Below, one piece after another: positions 25,037-28,479 of a stretch of DNA of 64,000 nt. The position numbers and the translations under genes are program-made. The first letter of the stretch is position 1. The number at the start of each line of letters is the position of its first letter. Source of the stretch: Thermoproteus sp. (GTDB lineage Archaea > Thermoproteota > Thermoprotei > Thermoproteales > Thermoproteaceae); assembly GCA_038893495.1 (NCBI GenBank), contig JAWARJ010000001.1, positions 248,001 through 312,000 of the forward strand, read 5' to 3'. Under the pieces are notes generated by a model that was not told where the DNA came from, did no database searches, and was given only the letters and a program-made list of their open reading frames with translations.

Positions 25037-25738
25037 CTAAGAGAACAGGAGCTTGTAGAGCGAGAGACACTCCTTGGCGGTAAGCCCCTCGCAGGCCTTG
25101 CCGGGCCTGCAGAAGTCGGCGAGGCCGTTTATGAACTTTACGGCGTCCTCTACGTGTTTGAAGAAGGCCGAGGCGAAGATGGCCCCGCTGTAGCTCCGCT
25201 TTATGATAGTGGCGCCTAGGTCCTCCAGAATTTTGGGGGCTGCCACTATGACGGGACATCCGCCTCTCAGCGATAGACCTATATCTATACCGCCTTCACA
25301 TATATATAGGTCCATATCCTTATTGTTGCCTACAAGGAATGCATAGATGCAAGCGCCTCTGAGATCTACATCGATAAATTTGGGCTCTATAAATTTATAT
25401 ATTGCATCTATAATCGCCGGGGCCTTCCTCGAGGCGCATTCAAATGCCGCCAGGACGTTCTCGTAGCCCTTCACTGAAAACACCGCATTGCCGTATCTAA
25501 GCGAGATGGAGTTGCCCCTAACGCTGATGTGCGTCAGCCGCTGGCCCTCTATGCTACAATAGACTGACTTTATCGCTGTGGCGCGCCAAGTCAAAACTAG
25601 AGAGGCCGCGAAGCCTAGAGTTACAGCCAGAGAGATGAGGTGTAGCCCGCGGACCCAGGCGAGGGCGGCCAACGACAAAAATACCAAAAAGCCGCCCCGC
25701 TCCAAGAAAAAACGATAGAAGCCGAGGGCCAGCTTCAC
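25037..25738 (-). CDS. Hypothetical protein with N-terminal transmembrane helices
   Basis: 233 residues. Two hydrophobic helices at ~17-50, followed by a ~180-residue soluble domain with strands (KSVYCSIEGQRLTHISVRG) and scattered Cys, including a C-terminal CRPGKACEGLTAKEC cluster that may form disulfides. No family recognised. Lies upstream of the AAA gene, 36 nt apart. Confidence 0.65.
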   Translation of the reverse strand: MKLALGFYRFFLERGGFLVFLSLAALAWVRGLHLISLAVTLGFAASLVLTWRATAIKSVYCSIEGQRLTHISVRGNSISLRYGNAVFSVKGYENVLAAFECASRKAPAIIDAIYKFIEPKFIDVDLRGACIYAFLVGNNKDMDLYICEGGIDIGLSLRGGCPVIVAAPKILEDLGATIIKRSYSGAIFASAFFKHVEDAVKFINGLADFCRPGKACEGLTAKECLSLYKLLFS

Positions 25739-25756
25739 GAAAATTCCGATTTGGAT

Positions 25757-26656
25757 CTATATAATTCTTGTGGCGACCATCTTCTCCACTTCCTCCCGTG
25801 TGGGCGAAGACCTAGCGCCCTTCCTGGTCGCCTTCAGCGCTCCTGCCGCATTGGCGAACCGCAAGGCGTATCGTATGTCCTTCCCCTCCAGCACTGCGGT
25901 CAAAAACGCCGCATCGAAGGCGTCTCCAGCGCCTGTAGTATCGACAACATCTACCTTAAATGCGGGCTCTTCGAAGGCTCCTCCCCCCTTCATGAAGGCT
26001 GAGGCGCCCCTTGCGCCTTTCTTAACCACTACGAGCTTCACGCCCAGCCCAAAGGCTCTCTCCACATCGCCGCCCAATAGGTTAAAGAACTCGGTCTCGT
26101 TTAGGAAGAGGTAATCCACATTAGCTAACAAGGGCTTTAGATATTCGAGACCCCTTTTAGACCACACCCGACCTGGATCTAGGCTTACGCCCAGCCCCAG
26201 CTCCTTCGCGCGCCTTGCCGCTTCGATTGCAGTCTCTAGGCGGTACATAGTGATATGTAGGAGGTCGAAGCCCCTAAAGAGGTCGTCGGATATGTCTCTG
26301 GGCTCTATGGCCTCCGATGCGCCGATGTACTCGAAGACTTTTACCTCGCCGCCCGGATGGACCAACAAGAAAGATGTGCCGGTCTGTTGCCCTATGACTA
26401 TCTTGACTTTAGATATATCGACGCCTTCTCTGAGGAGCTCCTCCAGTAGGATCCTGCCGAAATTGTCGAAACCCACAGAGGTGATAATTGCGGACTTCAC
26501 GCCGAGCCTCCGCGCGGCCACCGCGAAGTTAGAGGCAGAGCCCCCTCCGCCGTAGCGTAGTTCTGCGACTAACGTGGCCTCTCCTCCCTCCGGCCTCTCC
26601 GAGAGGTATAGCTGTATGTCCATCAACAAATGGCCCAACGCGACGACTGATGGCAT
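25757..26656 (-). CDS. PfkB-family sugar kinase (ribokinase-like)
   Basis: 299 residues, normal for the family. N-terminal substrate motif RYGGGGSASNFAVAARRLG and C-terminal DTTGAGDAFDAAF with the catalytic Asp. Candidates are ribokinase, 2-keto-3-deoxygluconate kinase or a nucleoside kinase. ATG 26656 lies inside the TATA box of the divergent M24 gene. Confidence 0.92.
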   Translation of the reverse strand: MPSVVALGHLLMDIQLYLSERPEGGEATLVAELRYGGGGSASNFAVAARRLGVKSAIITSVGFDNFGRILLEELLREGVDISKVKIVIGQQTGTSFLLVHPGGEVKVFEYIGASEAIEPRDISDDLFRGFDLLHITMYRLETAIEAARRAKELGLGVSLDPGRVWSKRGLEYLKPLLANVDYLFLNETEFFNLLGGDVERAFGLGVKLVVVKKGARGASAFMKGGGAFEEPAFKVDVVDTTGAGDAFDAAFLTAVLEGKDIRYALRFANAAGALKATRKGARSSPTREEVEKMVATRII

Positions 26657-26685
26657 ATATTGTAGTTGTTTCGTCGTATTTAATG
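26654..26685. promoter_or_regulatory. Interlocked divergent promoters: each TATA box contains the other gene's start codon
   Basis: Plus-strand TATA CATATATT (26654-26661) serves ATG 26683 of the M24 gene and includes the reverse-strand ATG (26654-26656) of the kinase. Minus-strand TATA (forward TATTTAAT, 26677-26684) serves the kinase ATG 26656 and overlaps ATG 26683. Both spacings are ~24-25 nt, so both messages would be leaderless and the two pre-initiation complexes could not assemble at once. Confidence 0.65.
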
Positions 26686-27876
26686 CACAAAATAAGTGTG
26701 GAGACCCTAAGGAGGAGGATAGACGCCTTGGGGCGGAGACTGGCCGAGTTGGGCCACGACGCTTATTACCTCACAAACCCGGAGAACATCTTCTACCTCA
26801 CCAACTACTATTTCCTACAGACCGAAAGGCCCCTATCCCTATTGGTTTCGACAAACGGCGAGCTCGCCCTATTCGCCCCCATGGTCGAATACGAACATTT
26901 CGACTTTAAGTCGCCGCTTAAAGCCAAGGAGTTCTACTACTTCGACTATCCCGGCGAGGTACATCTCATAAAGTTCATAGCAGAGAAAATAAAGGAGCTG
27001 TCTAGAGAGTGGGGCATAAAGTCGATCGCCCTCGAGAGCCCGGCGGGGGCGACTGGCGGCTGGGGCTATAAGGGGCCCGAACTGGCCGAGCTGTTGAGCC
27101 CCATCAAGACGGCAGTGTTGCCGGACCTCGTGGAAGACATGCGGCTCGTCAAAGACGAAGAGGAGGTGGAGCTGATAGAGGAGAGCGCCAAATGGGCCGC
27201 GAGGGGGCTGGACATAGCCAGATCGCTCATGGCCGAGGGCAAGTACGACTGGGAGGTGGCCCTAGAGGCCAGCCTCCAGCTCAGTAGGGAGATGGCGAGG
27301 GCCTACGGCGTCGGCTATATGCCTCTGAGGGAGTCCATACCGGGGTTCGTGGGGTTTAGGGGCCAGATCGGCGAGTACAGCTACTACCCCCACTCCATCT
27401 CGGCGCCCCGTCCCCTCAAGAGAGGCGACGTAATAGGCATTGGCGCCGGGCCAGAGGCCGGCGGCTACTACAGCGAGTTAGAGAGGACGTTGGTTTTAGG
27501 GAGCCCTACCGATGAGCAGAAGAAGTACTTCGAGTCCATGTTGGAGCTCAGAAGCGCCGCGTTTGAGGCGTTGGGGCCTGGCGTCGAAATAGCTGAGGTG
27601 GACAGGGCGGTTAGGAGGAGGGCCGAGGGGCTCGGGGTGGCCGACAAGTTGAGGCACCACACGGGACATGGAATCGGCATAGGCTTCCACGAGAGGCCCT
27701 ATATAGACGTCGGATATAGGGGCGCCTTGCAGCCGGGCATGGTGGTCACAATAGAGCCCGGTCTCTACGTGAGGGGCCTCGGCGGCTTTAGGCATTCCGA
27801 CACGGTCCTAATAACTAGAGGGGGCTATAGGCTGTTGACCAAATACCCCGAGGAGCTAGACGAGCTGACGGTATAA
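26683..27876 (+). CDS. M24-family (Xaa-Pro aminopeptidase/creatinase-like) protein with altered metal site
   Basis: 397 residues from ATG 26683. N-terminal creatinase-like domain and C-terminal pita-bread fold with HHTGHGIGIGFHERP and TIEPGLY. Of the five classical metal ligands, His329 and Glu358 are kept, but the first Asp is replaced by G252, the second by E265, and the last Glu by S372. It may be a metal-independent hydrolase (as creatinase is) or a binding protein rather than a standard prolidase. Followed after 3 nt by the CPBP gene. Confidence 0.88.
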   Translation: MHKISVETLRRRIDALGRRLAELGHDAYYLTNPENIFYLTNYYFLQTERPLSLLVSTNGELALFAPMVEYEHFDFKSPLKAKEFYYFDYPGEVHLIKFIAEKIKELSREWGIKSIALESPAGATGGWGYKGPELAELLSPIKTAVLPDLVEDMRLVKDEEEVELIEESAKWAARGLDIARSLMAEGKYDWEVALEASLQLSREMARAYGVGYMPLRESIPGFVGFRGQIGEYSYYPHSISAPRPLKRGDVIGIGAGPEAGGYYSELERTLVLGSPTDEQKKYFESMLELRSAAFEALGPGVEIAEVDRAVRRRAEGLGVADKLRHHTGHGIGIGFHERPYIDVGYRGALQPGMVVTIEPGLYVRGLGGFRHSDTVLITRGGYRLLTKYPEELDELTV

Positions 27877-27879
27877 GCT

Positions 27880-28479
27880 ATGGCCGACTATAGGCTCTAC
27901 GCCGCTCTGGCCTACGTGGTGTTGCTGGCGGCATATGACGTGGCGGCCGACTTCATGTCGCCGGCCGTCGCCGTGTATGTATTCGCGGTGCTTGAGACAG
28001 CCTTCCTGGCGTCGTTTAGGTGGATCAAATTGAGGTATTCAAGTCGCGGCTTCTACAACTCGCTCTTCCTCTTCTTTATGTGGTACATGGGTCTCGTCCT
28101 CATATCGCCGCTCTTAAGCTCTAGGGGAGCCGCTGCTGAGATCCAGTCGTTGTACGCGCAGGGCTTGTTCCCCGTGCTGATAGTCGTCTATATGCTCGAA
28201 GAGCCTCTGGTCTCAGAGTCCATATTTAGGGGCATCTTGTTCCAGCAGATATCGACGAGGAATAGAGCCGCGGCGTATTTAGTCTCCTCGTTGGCCTATG
28301 CCCTCCTCATGGTCTCGCCCGAAACCCCGACTGACTTGATAGCCGCAGTCCTCTACTTCCTACTGGGTCTGATATTCGCCTACGCCTACGAGAGGGGCGG
28401 CTTCACGTCGGCCCTTATGGTACACGCCGTATATTCGGCGCTCTACGCGCTGTCTTTAGTGCTCTCGCTGTACCTCTAG
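27880..28479 (+). CDS. CPBP-family intramembrane protease-like protein (degenerate motif)
   Basis: 199 residues, about six helices. Motif 1 reads SESIFRG where active CAAX/CPBP proteases have EExxFRG, so the first Glu is Ser; motif 2 HAVYSAL has the His but not the usual Asn. It may be inactive or use a variant site. Three nt after the M24 gene, so co-transcribed. Overlaps the next gene tail to tail by 4 nt. Confidence 0.8.
   Translation: MADYRLYAALAYVVLLAAYDVAADFMSPAVAVYVFAVLETAFLASFRWIKLRYSSRGFYNSLFLFFMWYMGLVLISPLLSSRGAAAEIQSLYAQGLFPVLIVVYMLEEPLVSESIFRGILFQQISTRNRAAAYLVSSLAYALLMVSPETPTDLIAAVLYFLLGLIFAYAYERGGFTSALMVHAVYSALYALSLVLSLYL

What the first reader, a model, noticed from the sequence alone, without database searches (positions are those of the whole stretch)
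26654..26685. Interlocked divergent promoters: each TATA box overlaps the other gene's start codon
Kinase ATG 26656 sits in the M24 TATA, and M24 ATG 26683 sits in the kinase TATA, with 24-25 nt spacing both ways. With leaderless transcripts the two genes cannot start at once, a built-in mutual exclusion in 32 bp. It also ties codon and promoter evolution together.
Basis: partly seen in the sequence, partly recalled or inferred. Interest (0 to 1): 0.6.

Follow-up and report, generated by a model that had tools for sequence, protein, structure and literature searches.

The report
Divergent leaderless promoters packed to limit
In this heat-loving archaeon (a Thermoproteus), two neighbouring genes pointing away from each other sit so close that each gene's start codon is part of the other gene's TATA box; it is real and conserved, but it is the tight end of a common packing of promoters, and nothing here shows that it works as an on/off switch.

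Summary
The geometry is real. The PfkB-kinase ATG (complement of 26654-26656) and the M24-peptidase ATG (26683-26685) lie 27 nt apart, the spacing that puts each TATA box on the other start. Most promoters of this Thermoproteus genome have TATA at about -27..-20 from the start codon. The arrangement is intact in G042 (26 nt). One gene is decayed or lost in G039 and G040, and the surviving gene's box remains. Across the four loci, changes fall in the spacer, not the boxes.

It is not unique. Of 431 divergent pairs from five Thermoproteaceae, 20 lie 25-34 nt apart and almost none closer. A second, unrelated pair (aldose epimerase locus) keeps 26-28 nt in three species. This is the packing floor of divergent leaderless promoters; 'CAT' (ATG read backwards) supplies the first three bases of a TATA box.

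'Built-in mutual exclusion' is not shown. Overlap of initiation complexes should affect every pair closer than about 84 nt (38% of pairs), blocks only simultaneous binding, and either gene survives loss of the other. In this genome the kinase half is weak: its interlocked box scores 0.7 bits, while a non-conserved box 11 nt upstream scores 6.1 and would give a ~13-nt leader.

The parts
25757..26656 (-). PfkB-family sugar kinase gene (299 aa), start codon = complement of 26654-26656
   Evidence: PF00294 E=1.8e-54; best NCBIfam hit ATP-dependent ribose-1-phosphate kinase, below its cut-off; same start in G042 and G040
26683..27876 (+). M24-family peptidase gene (397 aa), start ATG 26683-26685
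   Evidence: PF00557 E=5.1e-42 and PF01321; same start in G042 and G039
26654..26661 (+). TATA box of M24, CATATATT; contains the complement of the kinase start codon
   Evidence: 5.4 bits in the G000 promoter model; ATATATT invariant in four loci
26677..26685 (-). interlocked TATA box of the kinase, CATTAAATA; contains the complement of the M24 start codon
   Evidence: 0.7 bits in G000, 4.9 in G042, 3.6 in G040; TATT(T)AATG conserved in four loci
26689..26696 (-). alternative kinase box CTTATTTT inside M24 codons 3-5, implying a ~13-nt leader; only in this genome
   Evidence: 6.1 bits in G000, no counterpart above 2 bits in G042 or G040
26662..26676 (.). variable spacer between the two boxes
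   Evidence: 10 of 15 columns vary among four loci
25037..25738 (-). flanking 233-aa gene of unknown function, downstream of the kinase; conserved in all six genus members
   Evidence: no Pfam hit
27880..28479 (+). flanking Rce1-like (CAAX protease family) membrane protein, 3 nt after M24
   Evidence: PF02517 E=8.4e-13

Best explanation
Two ordinary archaeal core promoters for divergent leaderless genes, packed to the closest spacing that still leaves each TATA box outside the other gene's coding sequence. Because TATA lies about 26 nt before the start codon, a start-to-start distance of 26-27 puts each box exactly on the other start. This is tolerated because CAT, the complement of ATG, fits the first three positions of the local TATA motif (Y-W-T). 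Each promoter works on its own with TBP/TFB/RNA polymerase; the two complexes take turns on the same DNA. Any interference between the genes is a passive by-product whose size depends on how long a complex stays, not a dedicated switch. Shown: geometry, motif fit, conservation, recurrence at unrelated loci. Inferred: TSS positions, independent firing, alternation of complexes.
For: Sharp TATA peak at -26..-21 from start codons in three genomes and fitted offset mode -34 for the 16-mer. G042 keeps both boxes at d=26; G039 and G040 keep the box of the surviving gene after decay or loss of the partner. In G042, G040 and G039 the interlocked box is the only good hit near the gene. Of 431 divergent pairs, 20 lie at d 25-34 and 2 at d 5-24 against 56 at 26-45 (12 against 55 with starts chosen without TATA, p=1e-7). 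The 5 nt before starts are all A/T in 6 of 12 starts of pairs at d 24-28, a set that excludes this locus and its ortholog, against 6-8% elsewhere (Fisher p=1e-4). Second conserved case: aldose epimerase pair, d=28, 27, 26 in G000, G042, G039. Interlocked pairs encode unrelated functions.
Against: No transcript data for any of these genomes. The kinase box is weak in this genome and a better box lies 11 nt further upstream. Gene starts come from an ad hoc caller, and part of the survey used TATA to choose among starts. The survey counts this locus and its G042 ortholog.
Confidence: 0.8

Rival explanations
1. One reading: the overlap is a selected mutual-exclusion switch, so that only one of the kinase and the peptidase is on at a time.
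For: Both boxes and the spacing are kept in two species, and complexes on the two boxes must clash by geometry.
Against: Clash is expected for all pairs closer than about 84 nt, 38% of those surveyed. Genes at other interlocked loci are unrelated. Either partner is lost without loss of the other. No antagonism between the two enzymes is known. Spacing differs by 1 nt and box strengths differ between species.
Confidence: 0.08
2. In this genome the kinase is not leaderless: it uses the box at 26689-26696 inside M24 codons and has a ~13-nt leader, so only the M24 half of the interlock is functional here.
For: 6.1 bits against 0.7 bits for the interlocked box; 77 of 369 starts in this genome have their best box more than 4 nt upstream of the usual place.
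Against: The upstream box is missing in G042 and G040, where the interlocked box is good. Hits above 5 bits occur about twice per kb of strand, so one such box near a start is not rare.
Confidence: 0.4
3. The A/T runs next to the two start codons serve each gene's own start (initiator, melting or leaderless translation) and only look like TATA boxes for the opposite gene.
For: After loss of one partner both A/T runs remain (G039, G040).
Against: Starts in general show no such enrichment: 49% A/T and 6% all-A/T at -5..-1 in 559 same-strand genes, against 94% and 80% in pairs 24-28 nt apart.
Confidence: 0.07
4. One symmetric TATA box fires both ways, as in Pyrococcus.
For: ATATAT is symmetric; bidirectional firing from one box is shown in P. 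furiosus (PMC6640164).
Against: One shared box needs starts about 45-50 nt apart (49 bp in PMC6640164); here they are 27 apart with two separate boxes.
Confidence: 0.02

Closest known systems
Bidirectional transcription from one TATA box in Pyrococcus furiosus (PMC6640164)
   Same: Archaeal TBP/TFB promoters firing in opposite directions within some 50 bp
   Different: One shared box and TSSs 49-50 bp apart, producing mainly antisense noise; here two separate boxes with starts 27 apart, both for protein genes
Haloarchaeal gvpA/gvpD divergent promoters (PMC4390858)
   Same: Two oppositely oriented archaeal promoters in one short region with overlapping control elements
   Different: TSSs 108 bp apart, TATA-BRE elements 35 bp apart, overlap of the activator GvpE sites; here the core elements themselves overlap start codons and no activator is known
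Tightly spaced divergent promoters of Saccharolobus solfataricus (PMC8448881)
   Same: Divergent promoters noted as often tightly spaced in a Thermoproteota genome
   Different: Described there only as a filtering problem in ChIP-seq; no interlocked class defined
Divergent herpesvirus gene pairs overlapping at their TATA boxes, promoter competition model (PMC3389743)
   Same: Overlap of TATA elements of divergent genes with a proposed competition
   Different: RNA polymerase II promoters of a virus; competition assumed there, not shown

Membership tests
Archaeal TATA/BRE core promoter of leaderless genes | TATA box about 26 nt before the start codon | tested here: met
   M24 5.4 bits at offset -36 (box -29..-22); kinase offset -36 in G000, -35 in G042 and G040; kinase half weak in G000
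Archaeal TATA/BRE core promoter of leaderless genes | BRE (purine/A-rich) just upstream of TATA | tested here: inconclusive
   BRE part -0.5 bits (M24) and -2.8 bits (kinase) in G000
Archaeal TATA/BRE core promoter of leaderless genes | transcript starting at the start codon | not testable with these tools
   no TSS data; no paper found with TSSs for Thermoproteus
Single-box bidirectional promoter (P. furiosus type) | both TSSs served by the same TATA box, about 50 nt apart | tested here: not met
   two boxes, starts 27 apart; shared boxes occur at d 40-50 (24 of 25 pairs at 45-49)
Mutually exclusive promoter switch | transcription from one promoter lowers the other in the cell | not testable with these tools
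   needs transcript or reporter data
Mutually exclusive promoter switch | arrangement peculiar to genes with opposing roles | tested here: not met
   unrelated gene pairs share it and partners are lost singly

The most novel reading that the evidence does not exclude
Interlocked divergent promoters are a distinct class in leaderless archaea in which start codon and TATA box are the same bases, and occupancy of one promoter measurably lowers the other, giving a regulator-free see-saw between two genes.
Probability: 0.12. Interest if true: 0.55.

Novelty: new variant of a known kind. Interest (0 to 1): 0.3.

Why it matters
It shows how far divergent promoters can be compressed when genes are leaderless: start-to-start spacing meets a floor at about 26 nt, the TATA-to-start distance, because beyond it the box would fall inside the neighbour's codons. 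Thermoproteaceae then offer natural sets of interlocked, shared-box and back-to-back promoter pairs in which to measure interference between initiation complexes without any regulator.

Tried and rejected
Search for TSS papers on Thermoproteus found none; searches for divergent overlapping promoters in Pyrobaculum or archaeal head-to-head spacing gave no paper describing this arrangement, in a library that lacks most subscription journals. M24 start at 26650 considered and rejected (no box, frame not conserved). Distant M24 relatives (42-53% identical) in the sister family have their own TATA-like boxes; a recognisable kinase was not found next to them, so they cannot date the pair. A strict regular expression with both start codons inside boxes finds 11 places in the sampled DNA, only 2 of them (this locus and its ortholog) at called divergent starts, so the motif alone is not diagnostic. 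G039 and G040 were hoped to show decay of the useless box; both boxes persist, which is uninformative because each also touches the surviving start and the losses may be recent.

Full report
What is there. The window lies in a 1.995-Mb single-contig genome. The same locus in the public collection belongs to Thermoproteus sp. UBA157, and the nearest genomes share a genus with it. At 26654-26685 the sequence reads CATATATTGTAGTTGTTTCGTCGTATTTAATG. To the left on the minus strand is a PfkB-family kinase, to the right an M24-family peptidase. The two start codons are 27 nt apart, A to A.

Are the boxes real? Genes were called in 864 kb of this genome and in 400 kb each of four relatives with a coding model that ignores promoters. 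Upstream of 440 starts, A+T peaks sharply at -26 to -21 with a smaller peak at -32 to -30. A fitted model gives BRE 'AA' followed by Y-W-T-W-W-A-W-A, present in about two thirds of such starts. This is what leaderless archaeal promoters look like. M24 scores 5.4 bits, a median promoter here. The kinase scores only 0.7 bits in this genome, but 4.9 in G042 and 3.6 in G040. In each box the partner's start codon, read as CAT, fills the first three box positions. BREs are weak on both sides; they fall on the partner's first codons.

A complication in this genome. Scanning 150 nt upstream, the interlocked box is the only good one for M24, and the only good one near the gene in G042, G040 and G039. 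For the kinase in this genome, a box scoring 6.1 bits lies 11 nt further upstream, inside M24 codons, and would give a 13-nt leader. It has no counterpart in the relatives. So the kinase half may have shifted in this species; only TSS mapping can tell.

Relatives. Six genus members were compared at this place. G042 keeps both genes and both boxes at 26 nt. In G039 the kinase is a broken remnant and its start codon has changed (CAT to TAT), while M24 keeps its box. In G040 M24 is gone apart from a few bases, while the kinase keeps its box. G041 and G038 have neither gene between the same neighbours. Across the four sequences, 16 of 17 box-and-start columns are invariant against 5 of 15 in the spacer (Fisher p=0.0005); the alignment is small and the gap was placed by hand. 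In G039 and G040 the box of the lost partner also remains, which does not discriminate because it touches the surviving start and the losses may be recent.

How common is it? Among 431 divergent gene pairs in five Thermoproteaceae genomes, 20 have starts 25-34 nt apart. Spacing has a floor: 2 pairs at 5-24 nt against 56 at 26-45, and 12 against 55 when starts are chosen without any TATA information (p=1e-7). Three classes appear: two interlocked boxes (26-38 nt), one shared box (40-50 nt; 24 of 25 pairs at 45-49 nt use the same box), and two back-to-back boxes (55 nt and more). The strict form, with start codons inside boxes (26-28 nt), is 5 of 431, two of them this locus and its ortholog. The five bases before the start are all A/T in half of the starts of pairs 24-28 nt apart (6 of 12, a set that leaves out this locus and its ortholog) against 6-8% elsewhere, which argues that those bases serve the opposite gene. 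A second interlocked pair, aldose 1-epimerase with a small protein, keeps 28, 27 and 26 nt in G000, G042 and G039. Other interlocked pairs encode unrelated functions.

Mechanism. The best account is passive packing: independent core promoters as close as leaderless genes allow. Simultaneous assembly on both boxes is impossible on known footprint sizes, but that is so for any pair closer than about 84 nt (2 x 42 bp upstream reach, an assumed figure), here 163 of 431. A complex that clears within seconds to minutes lets the other fire, so exclusion in time of assembly is not exclusion of expression. In P. furiosus in vitro, even a single shared box gave both transcripts in almost similar amounts (PMC6640164). 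The loss of either gene alone shows neither depends on the other.

Comparison with the literature. The closest described cases are one-box bidirectional promoters in P. furiosus, the gvpA/gvpD promoters of haloarchaea (PMC4390858), the remark that divergent promoters are often tightly spaced in S. solfataricus (PMC8448881), and divergent herpesvirus genes overlapping at TATA boxes with an assumed competition (PMC3389743). No paper in the searched library describes TATA boxes that contain each other's start codons; the library is open-access only, so absence is weak evidence. I rate this a new variant of a known kind with modest interest.

Noticed in passing
L080:833-861 (G000:C1:1600833-1600861), L196, L195: A second interlocked pair (aldose 1-epimerase and a 132-aa protein) keeps 26-28 nt start spacing in three species with different box sequences.
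   Followed up: partly
sampled stretches of G000, G042, G041, G027, G029: Divergent pairs are in excess at start spacing 45-46 nt (16 against 4.4 expected with TATA-informed starts; 10 against 4.0 with coding-only starts), where both genes use one shared TATA box.
   Followed up: partly
25738-25775: The 233-aa gene downstream of the kinase has its own TATA-like box (TTATATA, minus strand, about 26 nt before its GTG) inside the end of the kinase gene, which may explain why it persists where the kinase is lost.
   Followed up: no
L004:2691-3200: G039 keeps a decayed kinase remnant: both ends of the gene are recognisable, the middle is scrambled and shortened.
   Followed up: partly
L086:2279-2842: In G038 the place of the kinase-M24 pair is held by an unrelated 187-aa membrane-like protein; in G041 by about 350 bp without a called gene.
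   Followed up: no
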